DNA of 64,000 bases from Neofusicoccum parvum (taxonomy: Eukaryota; Ascomycota; Dothideomycetes; Botryosphaeriales; Botryosphaeriaceae). The stretch spans positions 1,612,001 to 1,676,000 of the forward strand of contig CP087206.1 in NCBI GenBank assembly GCA_020912385.1, read 5' to 3'. The notes under the pieces were generated by a model. It worked only from the letters and a program-made list of their open reading frames with translations, had not been told where the DNA came from and made no database searches. The translations under genes were made by a program, and so were the position numbers. Of the stretch, positions 27,346 through 37,722 are shown piece after piece (position 1 is the first letter of the stretch; each line of letters opens with the position of its first letter).

Positions 27346-29728
27346 TTAATGGTCTTCCTGATTATAAATTTCGGGTTCTGTAGTCTCGTCGTAATTCACC
27401 CTCCTGTATCTTTGATGCACAGTGGTTACCTTAGTGCTTTTACCATCTTCCGCGATGGTAATTCCAACGTGAATATCCTTAAGTCCGTCTGCCTTCATCC
27501 ATTCTTCTATCTTAGAGTCTTCCGCCAGCGCCGCGTGTGCGAGATACTCCCTCGTCAGCTCAGACTGAATTTGGGCAACGCCTTGCCAGGAGGAGTTTGA
27601 TATTGTGGATAAGGAAGTTCCTGAGAAGGTTGTTAGCATATTGCAAGTTGGTATTTTGAGGATTATGTACCGAGAAAGAACCAAATGCTGATCATCACCA
27701 TCAAGATGCAGTGCAAAGCTACGGTGATCATCACGGCAACGTACCCTGGCTTCATACCAGCACAGGATCCGGTGTAGGAGGAGTTACCACCGGGGATTAA
27801 GGCTCCGACGAAGAAAGTCTGGTTGACTGTGGTCCCATTGTCGAACAAAATGATCTGATCGTAATACTCCATTCCGGCGATCGTGGTTAGAATTGCCTGC
27901 AAAGCTTCCGCTAAAGTTCCACCAAAGCGAAGTGTGTCAAGGAAAATTGTGCGGAGGCTGTAATCCATAAGTGTTGAGTTTGGCTGAGGTTTTCCGTACT
28001 GCGTAAAGTGGATAGTTTGATCGTAGAGACTGCTTAGATACGCGGACTCCGCGAGATAGTTGTTCCATGAGGCATTGACACTTCTCAGGATCCAGTCCTC
28101 CTCTGAAAGCTCAAGGACTCCGCGTTCCTCTAGAGAGTGAGTTTCAGATACCATCAGCTGTGCACGTACGTCGTCCATACGATATTTTCCATCGAAATTC
28201 CTTGGCAATGGCTCTGTCCTATTGTTACTCCCGATTGCACGGATTTGCATTTCGGTAGAGTTGAAGCTTGGAATACAGAGACTGAAGCGGAACATGGCAC
28301 TTTGTTCCGTATATCCACCGTCTTCACTGTAGATATCGAGCCATTCTTTACTGTTTCTCATCTTGAGGCCGTTTTCAGATGAGTTGAAAAGCTGTTCGAG
28401 TACGTGATATGAGGTGGTGTTTGAAAAACGTGCATCTGAAATACTGAGGACCCCAGTATAATTGATTGCCAGGTAATTTGTCTGATTTACTGACCATTGG
28501 TAATCGTTGTCAAAGAATTCAGGAACAAGGATTCCAGGAGAGTTGCGCAGCTGACAGAGCGTAATTCTCCAGTCATCAGGATGGTAGACCGCATTGATGT
28601 CCAGTAAGTTCTCAGATATCTCGCATTCGAAGCTTGTTTGTTGGCTAGCATAGAATCGCGATGATACGGTAGAATTTTTGGAAGGACGAGGGGTGAGCTC
28701 TGAGGGAACCGAAATCCTCCCGGTGAGAAGAGGAAGATAATCCGTAGGCACAAACCTGACATCCGTAATATTCGGTCTGATACAGAGCACTCTTGCATCA
28801 ACCACAGCAGCAGGGCCTTCATACCGGTGGATAGAACACCGGGTCTGCTGATCATTGATAGGAAGGAATGCCCTGATAGTGACTCCAGTGTCTACCACGC
28901 CATCTTGTAGGTATGGAGAGCTCTTAGTGCTGTACTCGGCAAATGTTGGATAGAAGTGCGGTCTCATCCCCCATCTCGAGCTCCCTGAAGCTGAATAATG
29001 GCCGCTGCCAATGTTCGTACTAACTTCTGAAGCAGATGTATGACTGTTGTTAGCGATATATTGTTAGCGCGTGTGAATCCATGCACAAGGAAATTACTCT
29101 GGATGTTTACCCGATGATATAACCTGATCCTACATCCATGAGGAGCAGAGTTGACGTGAACTGGAGTAATAAGGTCGTAATGGAAAACACCACAACAAGG
29201 CCTGGGAGGATACCTGTCTTGCTAAACCAAGGACTGAAACGGACGCCGGCGAGCAGGTGCCAAGCAAGAGAGTAAAGATTTGAGCCACCACTGCGCATGG
29301 TGGAAATAGTGGGAAGATGGATCAAGAGGACTTCCGTATGTTCCAATGCCAAGCTAGCGAGCATGGAAGTAGCAATACTGGCTTGTACACCAGTAGAGGC
29401 CCGGAGGATGACGGAGGTCAAAGCTATAGCTCTAGTCATCCATGCCTTGTTGGCGAGAAGATTCCAAATATCGTTTCTGTCATCGGAAAACCAAAGGAAG
29501 GTGATGGAACAGATTGAAATGATAAGGCCAATTGTTGTCCCAATGAGTAAGAACAGCGACAGCCATCCAACCTTTTTAATTCCACACTAATGCAAAAAGA
29601 CGTCAGCCGTCTCCGCAACGATACAGCATTGGTGTTTGAGATAAGGGCTCTATGAAGCAACGAAAATTACGGGACTAACTTTAGAATTATCTTTGTGTGC
29701 TAAAATTTTCGGCTCTTCGAGATCCGGG
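27346..29728 (-). pseudogene. Fungal multi-pass membrane protein with large glycosylated ectodomain, cut off from its N-terminus by the retrotransposon
   Basis: Downstream part of a gene whose first exon is split by the element at 29729-37717. Pieces on this side: rest of exon 1 (29728-29680), then exons 29586-29111, 29043-27671 and 27620-27346. With the N-terminal piece at 37829-37723 they form one unbroken 759-residue frame with consistent intron phases. Exon 2 encodes three membrane segments (KKVGWLSLFLLIGTTIGLII; a helix around ASIATSMLASLAL; GLVVVFSITTLLLQFTS). Exon 3 is an ectodomain of about 430 residues with roughly a dozen N-glycosylation sequons, closing with a fourth membrane helix near ALHCILMVMISIWFFLG. 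The cytosolic tail is about 90 residues. This layout belongs to a large uncharacterised fungal family; function unknown. The intact remainder shows the damage is recent. Confidence 0.8.
29724..29728. repeat. Left target-site duplication CCGGG
   Basis: The five bases directly before the 5' LTR (TG start at 29729) match 37718-37722, directly after the 3' LTR. A 5-bp duplication is usual for Ty3/gypsy integrases. It lies inside exon 1 of the split membrane-protein gene. Confidence 0.93.
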
Positions 29729-29847
29729 TGTTACGGCACAGCCTCCATGAGGTGAGGAAGTTGGGGGATTGCCCCGCAGTAGGCGAAGAACACAAAGAGA
29801 TGTGGGTCAAGAGTCACGTGACTCCCGCGATCAGCTAGGACCCACCC

Positions 29848-29936
29848 GCTCAGTAACTGAGCCGGCGGTCTTAACTGAGCCACCCGCTCAGTTGGAGCCA
29901 GGCGCTCAGGGCGTGAGCATCACCAACTCACTGAGC
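29848..29936. promoter_or_regulatory. Palindromic CTGAGC/GCTCAG cluster in U3
   Basis: Six copies of the core GCTCAG or its complement CTGAGC start at 29848, 29857, 29875, 29886, 29904 and 29931. Two pairs form perfect palindromes: GCTCAGTAACTGAGC (29848-29862) and AACTGAGC-N5-GCTCAGTT (29873-29893). They lie 30-115 bp upstream of the TATA box, where enhancers or operators are expected. The same cluster is at 37379-37467 in the 3' LTR. The factor that binds is unknown. Confidence 0.6.
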
Positions 29937-29963
29937 GTATAGATTGATAGAACTTTCCTACAG

Positions 29964-29970
29964 TATATAA
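29964..29970 (+). promoter_or_regulatory. TATA box of the retrotransposon promoter
   Basis: TATATAA followed by ACTACACTCC. Transcription is expected to start roughly 30 bases downstream, near 29994-30005, making everything up to there U3. The copy in the 3' LTR is at 37495-37501. Confidence 0.7.
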
Positions 29971-30186
29971 ACTACACTCCTTAGTATAGCTTTGACCTTC
30001 GTGGTCAACTTCAATAATCAATCTACACCATTGATTAGTAACACGGCCTTCGCACGCAGTGCTCAGTCACGTGTATTCGTTCACACTTGTTCTCTCCCCC
30101 TACCTTGTACCCACTCAAGGTAAACCCTACACGGCTTACCACCCTCTTTGGTGTTTGATCCTTGGAGGCAGAGGCCCGCCGTTACA

Positions 30187-30200
30187 CTTTGACCACCATC
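30187..30200 (+). other. Candidate primer-binding site (self-priming type)
   Basis: The bases right after the 5' LTR do not begin TGG, as a tRNA-primed site would. TTGACCAC (30189-30196) is the exact reverse complement of GTGGTCAA at 30001-30008, which lies where the transcript should begin (about 31-37 bp past the TATA box). In Tf1 of fission yeast the 5' end of the RNA folds back and primes reverse transcription; this arrangement fits that model. The match is only 8 nt, so a tRNA-fragment primer is not excluded. Confidence 0.45.
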
Positions 30201-30265
30201 CTTGCAAGGAAGGGTAAGAGAACATCGGGTAAGGTATCACCCCCTAACGAGTTTAGGAAACAGCA

Positions 30266-32239
30266 ATGAGTACGGTCAATATGGAGGACGTTAGCGCAGG
30301 ACAGGATCGTCTAGCGATTCCTCAGACACCGGCTCAAGAGGCCGCTCAGCCTGCTCACCAGGAGCAAACGGAGCCTACCATGAGAGAACTCATGCAGATG
30401 ATCCAGGAGCTGCGAGACGAGAACCGCATCCTGAAGAACCGACAGGATCAGGCCACCGGGCCAGATGCCGCAAAGAAACCATCCACCCAGGTCAAGGTGC
30501 CGAAGCCGGACCTTTACCATGGAGAGCGTACCAAGACGCAAAGCTTCCTCATGCAGCTAGAGGACTATCTACACTTCGCCAAAGGACAGTTCGGCAACGA
30601 CGCAGATAAGGTTCGCTACGCTAGCACCTTCCTCCGAGGAGCAGCAGAGAAGTGGTTCAGGCCCCACAAGAGAGAGACTCAGGAGAAGCCGCACTGGCAA
30701 TGGTCGCCTCAGACTCAGGCCATCTTCTCCGACTACAGGACCTTCGCCAAGCAGCTCCAGGAAGCGTTCAACGCCATTGACGAGGCCAAGCGTGCCAACC
30801 AAATCCTCTTCAGGATCCAGCAGAAGAAGTCAGTACTCGACTACACGGCTGAATTCCAGGAAGCAGCCTACGTCGCCGGAGAGCACTCAGACTACACACT
30901 CCGACAGCTGTACTACCGAGGCCTGAAGGACGAAATCAAAGAGGCTATGTCTTACCACGACGAACCCGAAACGCTCTCGGAACTAGTCCGCCTAGCCACC
31001 GATATGGATAGGAGGCGCACCAACAGGTGGTTCGAGAAGAAGGGTGGCTACCAAGCAAACACGAACAAGCCACGCCGCGAACGTACCACGCTGGAAGGAG
31101 GAGACGCCATGGCTCTCGACGCCGCCAACCGTCAGGACAAGAAAAAGGATAACAAGGGCCGGAACAACTACAACAAGAAGCCTAAAGGCCCGAATCCGAA
31201 CTGGACAGACGAACAGAAGCAACGCTACAAGGATCGACTCTGCATTACCTGCGGTAGCGACAAGCATTTCTCGCCTACGTGCCCGCAGAACCCTCGTAGG
31301 AAAGAAGGGAAGCAGACCTCAAGCGCTCAACGCGAAGCATCGGCCGTATCTCGCCAGGAGGACCACGACGCGCTAAGCTGGACGGCCTGCTTCAATGACG
31401 ACTGTCGAACCCATCAAAGCGACAAAGACGCTACAGGATGGTACCCGAAGAAGCCAAGAGGCATCGCCATGCTTACCAGGAACGAGGAAGTACTCGACCT
31501 CGACGATATCATCGAGTCATTCCCGCACGACGACGAGATTGTCAACAGTGAGAATGGCGAATTCTACGATAGTACAGAAGCCGAAGAAGACAGCTCCGAC
31601 GAAAAGGACCTCGCACAAGTGGAGGAGAGCCCATTGGCAGGCGCTATTAATAGGCTCCTTGAGAAAGTAGAGGAACACGGCATCATCGCTAAGATTCCCT
31701 TCCACCACGGCGAGTCGGAGCAAGGCATTTGGATCCCAGACAACCAGCCAGGACTCGCGTTAGTCACCTGGCAGGTACAGGAGGATCAGCTGTGGGAGAC
31801 GCGTGTCTATGAGGATCGTCACACGGAGACAGACGAAGTCACTCCTGAAGATAATCTAGCGACCCAGAGGACACTCGCCCAAGAGGAAGAAAGGGCAAGG
31901 ATGTTTCCTAGTATGGAAATAGCTGTTCCAGGCCTTAAGTGGAAAGCCCTCCGACAGATCCCAAGGCCGAGTCACCAGATCCTCCCAGAAGACGACGAAC
32001 GCCTCAACCCCCGGCATAAGAAGCATCGGCAGATTGCATGGATCTCATGCATCGACCATCAGTGCAGGACGCACAGGCGTCAGAAGAATGAAAACCATTG
32101 GTTTCCGGTACGCGTACAGCAAGATGGGACGCACCGAGTTATCGAGGAATGGGAAATAGAGGGATGGGGACCAAGCGGATGGACTCGCAACAACCTCTTC
32201 CTACTCTGGGAAGGCCAAAGGCACCAGTCAAAAAACTAG
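30266..32239 (+). CDS. gag: Retrotransposon Gag polyprotein
   Basis: 657 residues. An N-terminal coiled coil (TMRELMQMIQELRDENRILKN) precedes the capsid-like retrotrans_gag region (PKPDLYHGERTKTQSFLMQL to RLATDMDRRR). A zinc knuckle CX2CX4HX4C has C326, C329, H334 and C339. The C-terminal 300 residues are unusual. They hold an acidic stretch and two copies of a small Cys/His motif: WTACFNDDCRTH with GWYP from residue 372, and WISCIDHQCRTH with HWFP from residue 592. Gag forms the virus-like particle and the knuckle packages RNA. The stop TAG at 32237 follows the slippery heptamer directly, so Gag is the default product and Gag-Pol the frameshift product. Confidence 0.93.
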   Translation: MSTVNMEDVSAGQDRLAIPQTPAQEAAQPAHQEQTEPTMRELMQMIQELRDENRILKNRQDQATGPDAAKKPSTQVKVPKPDLYHGERTKTQSFLMQLEDYLHFAKGQFGNDADKVRYASTFLRGAAEKWFRPHKRETQEKPHWQWSPQTQAIFSDYRTFAKQLQEAFNAIDEAKRANQILFRIQQKKSVLDYTAEFQEAAYVAGEHSDYTLRQLYYRGLKDEIKEAMSYHDEPETLSELVRLATDMDRRRTNRWFEKKGGYQANTNKPRRERTTLEGGDAMALDAANRQDKKKDNKGRNNYNKKPKGPNPNWTDEQKQRYKDRLCITCGSDKHFSPTCPQNPRRKEGKQTSSAQREASAVSRQEDHDALSWTACFNDDCRTHQSDKDATGWYPKKPRGIAMLTRNEEVLDLDDIIESFPHDDEIVNSENGEFYDSTEAEEDSSDEKDLAQVEESPLAGAINRLLEKVEEHGIIAKIPFHHGESEQGIWIPDNQPGLALVTWQVQEDQLWETRVYEDRHTETDEVTPEDNLATQRTLAQEEERARMFPSMEIAVPGLKWKALRQIPRPSHQILPEDDERLNPRHKKHRQIAWISCIDHQCRTHRRQKNENHWFPVRVQQDGTHRVIEEWEIEGWGPSGWTRNNLFLLWEGQRHQSKN

Positions 32240-32288
32240 ACGGCCCTGCAGCCAAGGGACAACAGCAGGGGCCGCAGTCTAGGTCCCT
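32230..32288 (+). promoter_or_regulatory. Programmed -1 ribosomal frameshift signal (slippery heptamer plus pseudoknot)
   Basis: A AAA AAC at 32230-32236 lies in the correct gag register (TCA AAA AAC TAG), and pol is open in the -1 frame across it. After a 4-nt spacer, CGGCCCTGC (32241-32249) pairs with GCAGGGGCCG (32265-32274), nine pairs with one bulged G. The loop bases AGGGAC (32255-32260) pair with GTCCCT (32283-32288) to close an H-type pseudoknot. Heptamer, spacer and pseudoknot together are the classic -1 frameshift arrangement. The spacer is slightly short of the usual 5-9 nt. Confidence 0.8.
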
Positions 32289-35200
32289 CAATATGGTATC
32301 ACGCACCTCGAACACGGAAGCTCTCACCGGACCAAACCTATGGAAACAATTCAAGACACAAGGGACACTTAACGGAGTGTCTATCAGGATCCTGATCGAT
32401 ACAGGATCATGCGGGAACTTCATTCACAACGAGCTTGTACAGAAAATGAACATCCCCTACCATAAGAAACAGGAGCCCTACCCTCTTAGCGGGTTTGATG
32501 GCTCCCAAGCAGCCTATGGAGAAGGCTGGGTAAATATAGAAACGGAGGAAGCAACCCTCCAGATAGGGAACCATCAGGAACGGATTTCCCTCGACGTCCA
32601 ACGCGTCCCCGGGCATGATATCATTCTAGGAATGCCCTGGATTAGGACACAGAAACCAATCTTCGACTTTGGAAGAGGAGACTCCATCATCTTTCAAGAG
32701 GACCTTGAAAACCTCTTACGAAAACAAGGGCTGGAGAAAGAAAACGGGTTGTTGGATACCCTAAGGAAACTCCTAGCAACATCAACACGGGAAGTAGCCA
32801 GTGTAAGGCCTGAATGTGGCAACTGTGTAGGCAACTCCGACAGCGGTATAAGTCAGGACCAGGACTGCGACGCAAGTAGCGAAGCCTCCTCGGTAAAATG
32901 CAGCCCATCGGCGGGAATAAGCCCTACTGAGCGAAACGATACCCCCACCAGTACGGTCAATCAGGATGGCATAAGACCCGGCGACGGCAACATCAACGGC
33001 CACCTCGAGGACGGAATAAGTCAGAACCAGGATAGCAATGAGGCCTCCTCGGTAAAATGCAACACCTCGAGCGGAGTAAGACCAACCAGGACCGACACTT
33101 CTCAGGAACTAGAAGTACAACACACGACACGAAGGACTACGAGGAAGCGGCGTAAGGCTAAAAGTAAGGCTTCGCGGAAGCAATTAGCAGCCCTAGAACC
33201 TCAAACCGACGTCCAGATAATCTCAGGAGAGGCATTTAAGCGTATGAGACGCCAAGGACATCAAGTCTGCCTCCTATACATCAAACCCTCACCGGCAGCA
33301 CAACAGAGAGCACTGGCCAAAGCCCAAAGAGAAAGGCTAAAGAATGAGGACACTCCCGCTCCTCTAGGAGGAGATGATCCCGCGAGGGTCGTAAAGGGAC
33401 AACACGGCAGTCTGGAAATATGGAACAACCCGTATGGATATCCTCCGATACCCGAAATGGAAACGGTACCCAGCGAGTACTGGGATCTACAGGCCGTTTG
33501 CCAGGAAAGAGGAAAAGGAGACTTGCCTAAGCATCAGCCGTGGGACCACGAAATCCCACTCAAACCAGGCACGAAGCCAGCCTACAAACCCATCTACTCC
33601 TTATCAGAGAAGGAGATGACAGCACTCAGGGACTATATCGAGAAGAACCTTGAACGAGGATATATCCGACCTTCGACGTCATCAGCCGGATACCCAATCC
33701 TCTTTGTCCCGAAAAAGAATGGCAAGCTACGCCTATGTGTCGATTACCGACAGCTAAACGATATCACGATCAAGAACCGGTACCCTCTCCCTCGCATCGA
33801 CGAGCTCCAGGACAAGTTAAGGAAAGCAAAGTACTTTACGAAGCTGGACCTCCGGGAGGGATACCATCTAGTTAGGATCAAAGAAGGGGAAGAATGGAAA
33901 ACAGCCTTTAGAACGAGGCTAGGACTCTACGAGTACACGGTAATGCCATTTGGGCTTACTAACGCTCCAGCAACATTCCAGAATCTCGTCAACGACACAC
34001 TGCGAGAATACCTGGATATCTTCTGCATGGCCTACCTTGATGACATCCTCATCTTTTCAGAAACCCTTGAGGAACATAAGAAGCATGTAAGAAAGGTCCT
34101 AGAAGCCCTCCAAGCAAAGAACCTCTCCATCGCACCCGAGAAGTGTGAATGGCACGTCCAAAGAACGGAATTCTTAGGCTTCATCATCACCCCAGGTCAC
34201 GTCGGCATGGACGACTCGAAACTGGATTCCATTAGAGAATGGCCAGTACCAAAGACGATCAAGGAAGTACAGTCCTTCCTAGGATTCGCGAACTTCTACA
34301 GGAAGTTCATCTGGAACTACTCCGGAGTCACGGAACCTTTAACTAGGCTTACGCGAAAGGAGCATGGCTTTAAATGGGAAGACGATCAGCAACGGGCATT
34401 TGACTCGCTCAAGCGGATGTTTTGCGAAGCCCCAGTGCTCGGGATATACGATCCCGACAAGCCCACTGAAGTGGAAACTGATGCGTCAGGATTCGCCCTT
34501 GGAGCATGTCTCAGCCAGCCTGATGAAGAAGGCAGATGGCACCCAGTCGCGTTCTACTCCAGGAAGTTCACCCCGGCAGAGCTCAACTACGACATTCACG
34601 ATAAGGAGCTTCTAGCCATTGTCGCAGCTTTCAAGCAATGGAGGCATTACCTCGAAGGAGCAAGCCACCAGGTGGTAGTACGCTGTGATCATCAGAATCT
34701 CACACGCTTCACCACGACCAAAGAATTGAACCGACGGCAGGTTCGCTGGTCAGAAGAAATGGCCTCCTATGACTTCAAGATCACCTACAGAAAGGGATCT
34801 GATAACGCCGCAGCTGACGCGCTCAGCCGAAGAGTGGATTATATGGAAGGGAAAACCAAGCCGCACCCTGCAATCTTTGCAGAGGATAGCGATGGATCGC
34901 TCCTCCTTGCCAGACAAACACTACCCATGCTACGCATCGAGCCGAACCCATGGCACCAGAAGATCCGAGAAGCATACGCCCAGGACTCCTTCGCGCAGGA
35001 ACTTTTAGCGCTTGAGGACGATCCGCGTATTGCTCGAGACAGAGAAGGAACGCTTCTCTTCAAAGGACTCATCTATGTCCCAACACGGTTACGAGAAGCA
35101 CTGGTAAAAGATATCCACGAAGCCCCAGCACACGGACATCAGGGCATCGACAGGACAACAGAAAGAATCACGAGGAACTACTACTTCCCAGGACTAAGGA

Positions 35201-37080
35201 AAACCGTACAGCGTGTAGTCTCGCAGTGCGATCTTTGCATCAGAAGCAAGGCCGCGACACATGCACCTTATGGCCTCCTACAGCCGCTGGAAGCACCAAA
35301 GCGACCATGGCAGTCCATCACACTGGACTTCGTCACCAAGTTACCCAGGTCGAAAGATCCCCTTACAGGAGTCTCGTACGACTCGATTCTCGTCTTCGTC
35401 GACCGACTCACGAAGTATGCGTACTTCCTGCCCTACCTCGAGGCATCCAACGCAGAACAGCTCGCCTACACGTTCCTCCGAACCATCTTCGCGGACCACG
35501 GAATGCCGGAAGAAATGGTGTCGGACAGAGACAAGCTCATGGCCTCCGAATTCTGGCAAACAGTTATGCGCCAACTAGGAACGAAGAGTAAGCTTGCTAC
35601 CACAGCACACGCGCAAACAGATGGTCAAACGGAACGAATGAACCGGACTCTTGAACAATACCTCCGCTGTTATATCAACTACCCACAGGAAAACTGGGCA
35701 GAACTATTACCCATGGCCCAATTCGCTTACAACAGCTCCAAACAGGAATCCACGAACGAGTCACCGTTCTTCGCCAACTACGGGTTCGAACCGGAAGCCT
35801 ACAGGGAAACGATCCCAAGTAGAAAGCTAGCGCAAAGTGGTATCCTTAAAGCCGAGCAGCTGAAGGAACTCCACAAGGCTATCAGCCTTGACCTCGAATA
35901 CGTCCGAATCATGATGTCCAAATACTACAACAGACGGCACCAGGCGGCACCGAACCTGAAGAGGGGGGATAAGGTCTATCTCCTCAGGAAAAACATCAAG
36001 ACCAAACGACCAAACGATAAATTGGATTTCAAAAAAATTGGCCCATTCAAGATTGAAGAGAAACTCGGAGAAGTCACCTATCGACTCAAACTATCAAACA
36101 CGAGGATGAACTCCACTTTCCACGTCTCACTGCTCGAGCCAGCACCCGAGAACGCCAACATCCCAGAAACTCAAGAAGAAATTGTACCAGAGAACCCGGA
36201 CGCCGAGGAAAAACAGTACCCGGTAGAGAAAATCCTAGACTGCAAACGGTTCGGTCATCAGCTTAAGTACCTGGTCAAATGGGAAGGATACGGGAATGAG
36301 GATAACCAGTGGATACCCAAGGACGACATACATCCAGAACTGGTCACAGAGTTCCATCGCCAGAACCCTGACCTCCCACGGAAACGAGGTCGCCCTCGAA
36401 AACAAACAACGGCAAACCCTCAAGAAGCACAGGATCGAGAACCAAGCGAGCGGAATCCACCAACTCAGAGGAATGAGGAGACCTTGCACCCGTCACGGGC
36501 TCACCGGCAGACCCGGCAGACTCAGCCGACTGCGGCACAGCAGGACCCACCGCCTCGTGACGTGGCCGTTTTGACGCGGACGGACCCTCAGAACTCTCAG
36601 GGTCAGGAGCGTACCCCTCATCCTCGGCCAACGCCGCCAGCAGCTCCTCCGCCTCTCGACGATCATGCTCATCCAACGCGGCCAAGCTACCAGACTCAGC
36701 GAGAAGAGCCTTGTAGCCACGCTCCTCTAATAAACGCTGATTCTTGCGTATCCGCTCCAGGCGAGCCGCGGCGGTTCCCAGCTCTTTCTGTTGCAACCGC
36801 AATGCCTCTTGCAGACGATCCATCTCCGCTAACGACGCCCGAAATCTCTCTTGAGCCTCTACCTCCTTCGCCTTCAACTTCTCCTGTTCCCGTCGCAAGC
36901 TTTGGGCTAAAACCAGTCAATAAAGGAACCTTGGAAAGAAGCCGCCACATACCTCCGGCTAAAGACAAACCCTTAGCGTCACACATCGTGGACCCCTTCA
37001 AAATACAAGAACCACAGCGCTCCCGACCAGGAACTACCTTGCAGACACTTCCGTTCAAGTCGCAATCGAAACAAGGATGA
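32237..37080 (+). CDS. pol: Retrotransposon Pol polyprotein (PR-RT-RNaseH-IN-chromodomain), reached by -1 frameshift
   Basis: The -1 frame is open from before 32098 to 37080; translation is expected to enter at about 32236. Aspartic protease: IRILIDTGSCGNF near 32390. Reverse transcriptase: LCVDYRQLNDITIKNRYPLP (33730-33790), MPFGLTNAPATFQ, and catalytic YLDD near 34034. RNase H: ETDASGFALGACLS (34477). Integrase: HHCC zinc region HEAPAHGHQG with CDLC (35116-35240), then D in ITLDFVTKLP, D in MVSDRD and E in GQTERMNRTLEQ. Chromodomain: YPVEKILDCKRFGHQLKYLV with WEGYG (36218-36300), then an AT-hook-like KRGRPRK. The last 230 codons are Pro/Ser/Thr/Gln-rich, have no domain, and lie exactly opposite the antisense gene. 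Confidence 0.93.
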
Positions 37081-37160
37081 ACAGCGGGTAGAGGAACTGA
37101 CTCTACCAAGGCCGCTAAACGATGGCGCTCCTTAGTCGTATCCCGCTTACGCTTCGACAT
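36344..37160 (-). CDS. Antisense spliced gene inside the retrotransposon: six-cysteine (Gal4-like) cluster plus coiled-coil protein
   Basis: Two exons, 37160-36953 and 36906-36344, with a 46-bp intron (GTATGT donor, TTGAC branch-like site, TTTTAG acceptor). They join in phase to 256 residues; without splicing the coiled coil is out of frame. N-terminus MSKRKRDTTKERHR is strongly basic, NLS-like. Six cysteines follow at 30, 33, 40, 49, 52 and 60, spacing 2-6-8-2-7, within the Zn2Cys6 pattern. A long charged heptad region (about 72-135, LRREQEKLKAKEVEAQERF onward) should form a coiled coil. The tail is acidic with a basic SKRPRHE. I recall similar uncharacterised predicted proteins in many fungal genomes, but cannot confirm that they too lie antisense in retroelements. 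The gene starts 100 bp inside the 3' LTR, so an antisense LTR promoter is likely. DNA binding is inference. Confidence 0.75.
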
Positions 37161-37244
37161 GATGAACTTACGGGGAAGGAATGTATCCAGGTAGCAAGAC
37201 TTAAGAAATAAGCTGCACGGAAGAATCTTCGGGCCGAAGATCCT

Positions 37245-37256
37245 AAAAGGGGGGGA
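37245..37256 (+). other. Polypurine tract
   Basis: Twelve purines (AAAAGGGGGGGA) three bases before the TG of the 3' LTR; this is the plus-strand primer site. On the opposite strand the same bases read as a pyrimidine tract ending in TTTTAG, which resembles a 3' splice site. Confidence 0.85.
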
Positions 37257-37259
37257 TAG

Positions 37260-37717
37260 TGTTACGGCACAGCCTCCATGAGGTGAGGAAGTTGGGGGAT
37301 TGCCCCGCAGTAGGCGAAGAACACAAAGAGATGTGGGTCAAGAGTCACGTGACTCCCGCGATCAGCTAGGACCCACCCGCTCAGTAACTGAGCCGGCGGT
37401 CTTAACTGAGCCACCCGCTCAGTTGGAGCCAGGCGCTCAGGGCGTGAGCATCACCAACTCACTGAGCGTATAGATTGATAGAACTTTCCTACAGTATATA
37501 AACTACACTCCTTAGTATAGCTTTGACCTTCGTGGTCAACTTCAATAATCAATCTACACCATTGATTAGTAACACGGCCTTCGCACGCAGTGCTCAGTCA
37601 CGTGTATTCGTTCACACTTGTTCTCTCCCCCTACCTTGTACCCACTCAAGGTAAACCCTACACGGCTTACCACCCTCTTTGGTGTTTGATCCTTGGAGGC
37701 AGAGGCCCGCCGTTACA
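37260..37717 (+). repeat. 3' long terminal repeat
   Basis: 458 bp, the same sequence as 29729-30186 as far as I can see, ending CCGTTACA before the CCGGG target copy. It supplies the polyadenylation region of the sense transcript and may drive the antisense gene at 37160. Confidence 0.95.
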
Positions 37718-37722
37718 CCGGG
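37718..37722. repeat. Right target-site duplication CCGGG
   Basis: Matches 29724-29728. Dropping one copy together with the element rejoins exon 1 of the membrane-protein gene in frame. Confidence 0.93.

What the first reader, a model, noticed from the sequence alone, without database searches (positions are those of the whole stretch)
36344..37160. A spliced antisense gene for a Gal4-like cysteine-cluster, coiled-coil protein inside a chromovirus
Seen: on the strand opposite pol, two frames join through a 46-bp intron with proper GTATGT...TTTTAG ends into a 256-residue protein. It has a basic start, six cysteines in 2-6-8-2-7 spacing, and a long coiled coil. A chance shadow of pol would not be expected to give a phase-correct intron plus a cysteine cluster plus heptads. 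Known: HTLV-1 makes an antisense bZIP regulator (HBZ) from its 3' LTR, so antisense regulators exist in retroelements; Gal4-type clusters plus coiled coil are DNA-binding dimers in fungi. Inference: the element may encode its own transcription or silencing regulator.
Basis: partly seen in the sequence, partly recalled or inferred. Interest (0 to 1): 0.88.

Follow-up and report, generated by a model that had tools for sequence, protein, structure and literature searches.

The report
Retrotransposon antisense gene with matching promoter
A fungal jumping gene carries, on its opposite strand, a real spliced gene for a cysteine-cluster coiled-coil protein that comes in interchangeable versions, each travelling with its own set of evenly spaced promoter sites, which suggests that the element makes a private switch for its own promoter.

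Summary
Antisense to the 3' end of a chromovirus, exons 37160-36953 and 36906-36344 encode 256 residues with Cys spacing 2-6-8-2-7 and a 46-nt phase-1 intron. Seven divergent versions in this genome keep all six cysteines. Antisense dN/dS between versions A and B is 0.14 (exon 1) and 0.04 (exon 2), the lowest of six frames. A and most copies of B share gag-pol at 98-100% identity and R-U5 at 98.8%, yet their antisense genes differ at dS about 1.3 and their U3s are diverged. Seven of eight U3 types hold an array of 5-9 short half-sites with recurrent spacing (A: 5,13,5,13,5,13); the eighth is not significant. Antisense type and U3 type agree at 30 of 30 typed places. Best reading: the protein binds its own LTR array and controls the element's transcription. 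Transcription, binding and sign are not shown. Gal4-family membership is inconclusive. Antisense genes here are known (brtn, Grande), and VANC proteins coevolve with target repeats; my searches found no report of a swappable regulator-operator cassette in an LTR element.

The parts
29729..30186 (+). 5' LTR; 5-bp target duplication CCGGG at 29724-29728 and 37718-37722
   Evidence: the two LTRs lie within an identical 460-base run; ends TGTTAC...GTTACA
29848..29936 (.). half-site array (7 x GCTCA/TGAGC, spacers 5,13,5,13,5,13) in U3 of the 5' LTR
   Evidence: array scored on the identical 3' LTR
30266..32239 (+). gag ORF
   Evidence: PF19259, PF03732, on the piece 30266-31300
32290..36360 (+). 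pol domains: protease, RT, RNase H, integrase, chromodomain (chromodomain 36217-36360)
   Evidence: searched in pieces: PF13650, PF00078, PF17917, PF17921, PF24626, PF00385; rve PF00665 only below its cut-off
36344..36906 (-). antisense gene exon 2: coiled coil (about 36620-36904) and acidic/hydrophobic tail (about 36347-36604), the tail shared with versions B, C, E
36907..36952 (-). 46-nt phase-1 intron GTATGT...TTTTAG
   Evidence: same junction removed in annotated relatives P0001, P0003, P0006
36953..37160 (-). antisense gene exon 1: basic N-terminus and six-Cys cluster (36981-37073)
36361..37080 (+). open sense frame running on from pol; read as a shadow of the antisense gene
   Evidence: no Pfam match for 36499-37077
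37217..37278 (+). constant block with polypurine tract and LTR start, between the two variable stretches
37260..37717 (+). 3' LTR
37346..37351 (.). CACGTG palindrome in U3, present in 7 of 8 U3 types (not in E); possible host-factor site (recalled, not tested)
37379..37467 (.). half-site array, 3' LTR: 7 x GCTCA/TGAGC, spacers 5,13,5,13,5,13; proposed binding array of the antisense protein
37472..37717 (+). constant part of the LTR: TATA box (37495-37501), R, U5

Best explanation
The antisense gene encodes a DNA-binding, coiled-coil regulator of the element's own LTR. Shown: a conserved reading frame under purifying selection; six invariant cysteines; a version-specific N-terminal/coiled-coil part followed by an acidic, hydrophobic tail (the same tail in A, B, C, E; other tails of like composition in F, G, D); an array of short, evenly spaced half-sites in U3 upstream of a constant TATA box; and exchange of antisense gene plus U3 as a unit between nearly identical gag-pol backbones. 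Inferred: splicing as modelled; the Cys cluster binds the half-sites as a dimer or higher oligomer held by the coiled coil; the tail contacts host transcription machinery; the 3' LTR U3 drives the antisense transcript and the 5' LTR U3 drives gag-pol, so that one protein controls both. Sign, my guess: activator 0.5, repressor or self-limiter 0.3, anti-silencer 0.2. Exchange would follow from reverse transcription of two co-packaged RNAs: the obligatory strand transfer at R, plus one template switch in the shared tail, gives this mosaic.
For: Selection: antisense dN/dS 0.14/0.04 (A-B), 0.16/0.45 (F-G), 0.38/0.36 (A-E) for exon 1/exon 2, lowest of six frames in each of the 6 tests. Six Cys kept in 7 of 7 modelled versions. 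Module: A versus C, C10b or E has no blastn match over 36610-37202 nor over 37291-37468, but matches before, after and in the polypurine block. A versus the C14 copy of B: gag 100% over 1135 bp, next 4501 bp 98%, 35900-36400 100%, antisense body mostly 65-80%, U3 bins 54-77%, R-U5 98.8% over 248 bp. Arrays: recurring-spacer score 6, 5, 5, 7, 4 for A, B, C, E, D, each reached by 0 of 1000 shuffles; G 3 (0.006), F 2 (0.035); best of 1038 background windows 3. Motif matrix near-diagonal except the related A/B pair. A-B half-site columns 30 of 35 identical, other columns 3' of CACGTG 45 of 85. Array patterns of A, C, D, E: 43, 99, 100, 26 matches genome-wide, reversed-pattern controls 0; 42 of the 43 A matches lie in LTRs listed. 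Type agreement 30 of 30. A full six-Cys plus helix relative outside this genome: P0014, Thermoascus crustaceus, and P0011, unnamed source. Helix 54-122 in P0014, pLDDT above 90 over about 61-120. Tail net charge -4 to -8 in 8 of 8 proteins.
Against: No RNA, binding or phenotype data. Antisense gene and U3 are neighbours, so their agreement also follows from linkage; 8 of the 30 places are the reference versions themselves and one (L030) is typed on weak scores. C10b's U3 has 3 half-site copies and no significant array; by plain 6-mer counts against 1038 window stretches the signal is weaker (fraction reaching it: A and E 0.001, B, F, D 0.012, C and G 0.046, C10b 0.37), and a second F-type U3 (L066) is not unusual for 6- or 7-mers (0.27, 0.87). 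Half-site motifs were chosen after seeing the sequences. No member passes a Zn-cluster model. Several annotated relatives lack the cluster: P0001, P0003 and P0006 start after it, P0013 lacks most of it, P0008 has most cysteines changed. Whether the relatives in other species lie antisense in elements was not tested. F/G and C/C10b have related proteins but different half-sites.
Confidence: 0.7

Rival explanations
1. The protein acts elsewhere (for example in particle assembly, nuclear import or targeting of integration), and the U3 arrays bind host transcription factors; the two travel together only because they are neighbours.
For: The parts are about 0.1 kb apart, so linkage alone can give the 30 of 30 agreement. 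Seven of eight U3 types also hold CACGTG sites, which may be host sites.
Against: The matches of four array patterns, judged by eye on the printed letters, carry the elements' own or closely similar spacers, so no unrelated host promoter with such an array was seen. Between A and most B copies gag and pol are 98-100% alike, so the antisense gene is the main version-specific gene.
Confidence: 0.17
2. The antisense RNA, not the protein, is the agent: it pairs with the gag-pol RNA and feeds RNA silencing.
For: Proposed as one possibility for antisense transcripts of retroelements (PMC7264820, passages seen).
Against: Codon-level selection in the antisense frame with conserved Cys needs a protein; it does not exclude an added RNA role.
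Confidence: 0.07
3. A special case of the best explanation: the protein is a sequence-specific anti-silencing factor, like VANC of Arabidopsis VANDAL elements, rather than an activator or repressor.
For: Same pattern: element-encoded protein, repeated short targets in its own noncoding DNA, targets changing between related elements (PMC5735166, abstract and passages). D-type arrays vary in length by a 13-bp period.
Against: No homology test to VANC was made; the arrays sit directly upstream of TATA, as promoter sites would; the acidic tail suggests transcription.
Confidence: 0.15
4. Coincidence: a conserved but cryptic frame with simple repeats in U3.
For: C10b has no significant array, F only 0.035; plain 6-mer counts are less striking.
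Against: Antisense dN/dS 0.04-0.45 across six tests, seven versions with invariant cysteines, five U3 types at 0 of 1000 shuffles.
Confidence: 0.03

Closest known systems
brtn, antisense gene of Boty-like Ty3 elements in Botrytis cinerea (Zhao et al. 2011, Virology 417:248; only its title seen, as a citation in PMC8365987, PMC4227169 and PMC7264820)
   Same: Fungal gag-pol element with chromodomain and an additional antisense gene.
   Different: Its sequence and paper are not held, so homology, cysteines, intron and U3 coupling could not be compared.
aORF-3R antisense genes of plant LTR elements (Grande gene23, RIRE2, Retand, PvRetro13; PMC7264820, abstract and passages seen)
   Same: Antisense gene between pol and 3' LTR; own promoter in Grande; function undetermined.
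   Different: The passages seen report no clear similarity to other proteins, and no version-specific U3 array or module exchange.
VANC proteins of VANDAL elements in Arabidopsis (PMC5735166, abstract and passages seen)
   Same: Element-encoded sequence-specific protein; repeated short targets in its own noncoding DNA; protein and target evolve together.
   Different: Not an LTR element; anti-silencing and binding shown by experiment; no exchange of protein plus target between constant backbones in the passages seen.
HBZ and Tax of HTLV-1
   Same: Retroelement-encoded regulator; HBZ is antisense from the 3' LTR.
   Different: No bZIP here; different protein class.
Phage immunity regions (repressor plus operators), recalled
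   Same: Discrete, exchangeable specificity modules on shared backbones.
   Different: Analogy only; no immunity or incompatibility was tested.
Ty1 p22/p18 self-restriction (PMC4599808, PMC8458377: search listing; PMC12530519: abstract)
   Same: Retrotransposon-encoded, subfamily-specific self-control in fungi.
   Different: Acts on the capsid and derives from Gag; not DNA binding.

Membership tests
Zn(II)2Cys6 (Gal4-type) regulators, PF00172 | C-x2-C-x6-C-x(5-12)-C-x2-C-x(6-8)-C spacing (consensus recalled) | tested here: met
   Met by A, B, C, E, F, G (6 of 7 modelled versions); D has 15 residues between Cys 2 and 3.
Zn(II)2Cys6 (Gal4-type) regulators, PF00172 | passes the curated Pfam model | tested here: not met
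   Best E 0.2, 3 of 7 members touched; window protein not hit. PDB profile search: LEU3 E 0.42 with the whole protein; PUT3 0.79 and LEU3 1.6 with the N-terminal part, beside p300/CBP fingers at 0.44-1.2.
Zn(II)2Cys6 (Gal4-type) regulators, PF00172 | basic DNA-contact residues between Cys 2 and Cys 3 (recalled) | tested here: not met
   Window protein has DLNGSV, C has LEHESE: none; B, E, F, G have one Arg each; D's longer loop has three basic residues.
Zn(II)2Cys6 (Gal4-type) regulators, PF00172 | coiled-coil dimer helix after the cluster | tested here: met
   Continuous helix 54-122 in homologue P0014, pLDDT above 90 over about 61-120; heptad-like stretches in the 8 proteins examined. Not predicted for the window protein itself.
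Zn(II)2Cys6 (Gal4-type) regulators, PF00172 | two-zinc cluster fold | tested here: inconclusive
   Cys part at mean pLDDT 52-76 per block and 41-55; second look at 4 Foldseek chains matched the long helix only.
Chromovirus (Ty3/gypsy with chromodomain) | gag, PR, RT, RNase H, IN, chromodomain, LTRs | tested here: met
   the integrase core rve is listed below its cut-off, the other domains named in parts pass.
Antisense aORF between pol and 3' LTR (plant aORF-3R, fungal brtn) | position and orientation | tested here: met
   the end of exon 2 overlaps the chromodomain end by 17 bases.
Antisense aORF between pol and 3' LTR (plant aORF-3R, fungal brtn) | sequence homology to brtn | not testable with these tools
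   Paper and sequence not held; three protein searches listed no protein named as Botrytis, though most hits from metagenomes are unnamed.
VANC-type anti-silencing protein | repeated version-specific targets in own noncoding DNA | tested here: inconclusive
   Repeats are there; that they are the protein's targets is inferred.
VANC-type anti-silencing protein | loss of DNA methylation on expression; homology to VANC | not tested
   -
HBZ-like bZIP regulator | bZIP domain | tested here: not met
   No bZIP listed in Pfam scans with max E 10.

The most novel reading that the evidence does not exclude
LTR retrotransposons can be sorted by exchangeable self-recognition cassettes: an antisense DNA-binding regulator and its cognate operator array in U3 travel as one unit between constant gag-pol backbones during reverse transcription, and diversify under frequency-dependent selection, as phage immunity regions do, so that a genome holds several mutually blind transcription groups of one element.
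Probability: 0.35. Interest if true: 0.93.

Novelty: new variant of a known kind. Interest (0 to 1): 0.85.

Why it matters
The function of antisense genes at the 3' end of plant LTR retrotransposons is described as not yet determined (PMC7264820, abstract). Here one comes with its likely target: a version-specific, regularly spaced array in the same element's promoter. That turns an open question into a simple binding and reporter test with eight U3 types as built-in specificity controls. If true, retrotransposons own private promoter switches, which would shape which copies cross-activate or cross-repress each other, how new families invade occupied genomes, and how defective copies parasitise active ones. 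The pairs would also be a natural set of matched cysteine-cluster proteins and sites.

Tried and rejected
Chance shadow of pol: rejected; in exon 2 the reverse holds, in exon 1 the sense frame cannot be told apart by this test alone because it shares third positions, but its stop lies at a different point in each version. bZIP/HBZ relation: no domain support. Fold of the Cys part: models not confident; the second look at Foldseek matches listed helix matches and no Zn2Cys6 chain, which says nothing either way. Homologue searches reached, among named sources, Botryosphaeriales and one Eurotiales protein. I ran no Mantel-type test of protein against motif similarity; eight types seemed too few. 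The A/B pair shows a 22-residue coiled-coil insertion beside 11- and 12-bp gaps between inverted half-sites; one pair only, so left as a curiosity. I first thought the A and B backbones identical throughout; one search shows 98% over the middle 4501 bp for four of the seven B places, 94%, 89% and a partial 80% for the others.

Literature: searches for an antisense zinc-cluster regulator or gene in fungal LTR elements gave papers citing brtn, plant aORFs, retroviral antisense genes and reviews; one search gave none. None of the listings showed U3 coupling; I did not read the listed papers beyond the passages and abstracts named, and most subscription papers are not held.

Full report
WHAT IS THERE. 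The window lies at C1:1612001-1676000 of a 43.99-Mb, 18-contig genome. A Ty3/gypsy element spans 29729-37717: two identical LTRs, a CCGGG target duplication, gag, protease, RT, RNase H, integrase and a chromodomain (in pieces; the integrase core scores below its cut-off).

IT IS A GENE. The genome holds further versions at the same place: A (this element, five near-identical copies, plus one decayed), B (seven places), C (five) and a relative C10b, E, F, G, and D in a separate lineage with 71-72% pol identity. I modelled seven versions. All keep the six cysteines, and each can be given a phase-1 GT-AG intron of 40-48 nt just behind them, although much of the surrounding DNA does not align. The models differ in strength: E, F and G have one clear best; A and C have the best donor but two tied acceptors; D's donor ties with another and its intron has no stop; B's (donor GTCGGT) was set by homology to A. 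Decayed copies (C10b, the C18 copy of A, L066) gave no complete model. Independent annotation supports the junction: P0001, P0003 and P0006 join the same residues, and P0014 of Thermoascus crustaceus joins the cluster to the helix at nearly the same point.

SELECTION. On trimmed codon blocks of A and B the antisense frame has dN/dS 0.14 (exon 1) and 0.04 (exon 2, variable part, dS near saturation); on the fuller alignment 0.15 and 0.08. The five other frames range from 0.16 to 3.3. The lowest rival in each exon is the sense frame that shares third positions with the gene. Pol's own long frame is that rival in exon 1 (0.31, with a stop) but not in exon 2, where it gives 3.3. Its stop falls in exon 1 in A and G, in exon 2 in F and D, and beyond the gene in B, C and E, so I read it as a shadow. 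F-G (0.16, 0.45) and A-E (0.38, 0.36) agree. Codons with stops were dropped. Many copies are decayed: the C18 copy of A has 4 TAG and 3 TAA in exon 2.

MODULES. BLAST of the 3' end of A against other elements: conserved to about 36609, no match for C, C10b or E over 36610-37202, a conserved polypurine block near 37217-37278, no match in most of U3, conserved again from about 37472 (TATA, R, U5). The C14 copy of B is the clearest case. Against A, its gag is 100% identical over 1135 bp (so are five of the seven B places), the next 4501 bp 98% (four of seven), the end of pol 100% over 35900-36400, and R-U5 98.8% over 248 bp. But the antisense body falls to 65-80% (46% in the bin over the intron) and U3 to 54-77%; dS in the exons is about 1.3. 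A place on C7 whose gag scores 2025 of 2048 bits against A's carries version G, with the next 4501 bp at 97%. Hence a unit made of the antisense N-half plus U3 has been exchanged between backbones. Reverse transcription offers a direct route: strand transfer at R between two co-packaged RNAs, then one template switch in the shared tail. This is inference.

ARRAYS. Reading the U3s side by side, each has a repeated half-site, which I chose after seeing them: A and B GCTCA, C GGCAC, C10b GGCGACA, E GTTCA, F GATCYG, G GAGCA, D ATCCA. Counts in the own U3 are 3-9, elsewhere 0-2 apart from the A/B pair. Spacings: A 5,13,5,13,5,13; C 10,8,10,8,10 after a first outlying site; D 8,8,8,8; B 13,16,13,6,12,17,13; E 3,16,3,4,4,15,4 before a last outlying site. 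A blind recurring-spacer score over all 5-mers is reached by 0 of 1000 shuffles for A, B, C, D and E, by 0.006 for G and 0.035 for F (there on ATCTG); C10b scores nothing. Of 1038 background windows the best score 3, against 6 for A and 3 for G. Plain 6-mer counts are less telling: the fraction of background windows reaching them is 0.001 for A and E, 0.012 for B, F and D, 0.046 for C and G, 0.37 for C10b; a second F-type U3 is unremarkable for 6- and 7-mers. Between A and B the half-site columns are 30 of 35 identical, other columns 3' of CACGTG 45 of 85, with gaps of 11 and 12 bp between inverted sites. Genome-wide searches for the A, C, D and E array patterns gave 43, 99, 100 and 26 matches, reversed controls none. 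By eye, the printed matches carry the elements' own or closely similar spacers. I checked places for A only: 42 of 43 lie in LTRs listed, C1:4274750 does not appear there. Ten further LTR stretches were fetched; 9 gave a U3 nearest to a known type (84-100% identity), 1 gave none.

PAIRING. Antisense type and U3 type agree at 30 of 30 places where both could be typed (44 loci given, many overlapping; L006 and L066 hold two units and were resolved by position). One more place (L029) had no typable protein, and the second unit in L066 had its U3 outside the stretch. Eight of the 30 are the references, and L030 rests on weak scores. The parts are adjacent, so this is linkage as well as possible selection.

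HOW IT LIKELY WORKS. A basic N-terminus and Cys cluster, a coiled coil (one 69-residue helix in P0014, pLDDT above 90 over most of it), and an acidic, hydrophobic tail (net charge -4 to -8 in 8 of 8 proteins) make the outline of a transcription factor with a version-specific reading head. The A array ends 27 bp upstream of TATA. I think the protein binds it and controls the LTR promoter, most likely as an activator; repression or anti-silencing remain open. Why types diversify: escape from self-limitation, from parasitic defective copies, or from host control; none tested.

RELATIVES. Outside this genome the complete six-Cys plus helix form was seen in P0014 and in P0011 (unnamed source); P0019 has the Cys part. 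Other relatives lack or have lost it: P0001, P0003 and P0006 start behind it, P0013 (Aplosporella) lacks most, P0008 (Macrophomina) has most cysteines changed. Whether they lie antisense in elements was not tested.

KNOWN OR NEW. Antisense genes here are a known kind (PMC7264820; brtn, known to me from its title as cited in PMC8365987 and PMC4227169). Element proteins coevolving with target repeats are known from VANC (PMC5735166). The coupling of an antisense gene to its own U3 array, and exchange of both as a cassette, I did not find in the searches. Gal4-type membership stays open: spacing fits in 6 of 7, the Pfam model does not pass, and the window's protein has no basic residue between Cys 2 and 3.

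Noticed in passing
window 36361-37080, + strand: Pol's frame stays open over most of the antisense gene, so automatic annotation would give a 1660-aa pol; 36499-37077 has no Pfam match, and exon 2 shows no sign of constraint in that frame.
   Followed up: yes
G000:C2:3805820-3805902 and similar places: Some D-type arrays are longer, with pattern matches every 13 bp, which looks like tandem expansion of sites.
   Followed up: partly
P0005 (Botryosphaeria dothidea SLS57_006002): A gene model with NmrA-type Pfam domains is fused to sequence like exon 2 of the antisense gene; either an insertion into a host gene or a prediction error.
   Followed up: no
L006 (C18:218490-222304): A decayed A-type copy lies directly beside a D-type element.
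   Followed up: no
A versus B, exon 2 and U3: B has 22 extra coiled-coil residues and 11-12 bp longer gaps between inverted half-sites; might reflect reach of the dimer, one pair only.
   Followed up: partly
window 37346 and 37599; other U3 types: CACGTG palindromes recur in 7 of 8 U3 types (not E), and once in the R-U5 part of the window's LTR; possibly sites of a host factor.
   Followed up: no
G000:C1:4274750-4274782: One match of the A array pattern outside the LTRs listed, with spacers like those of the LTR at C5:3164377-3164830; probably a further diverged LTR.
   Followed up: no
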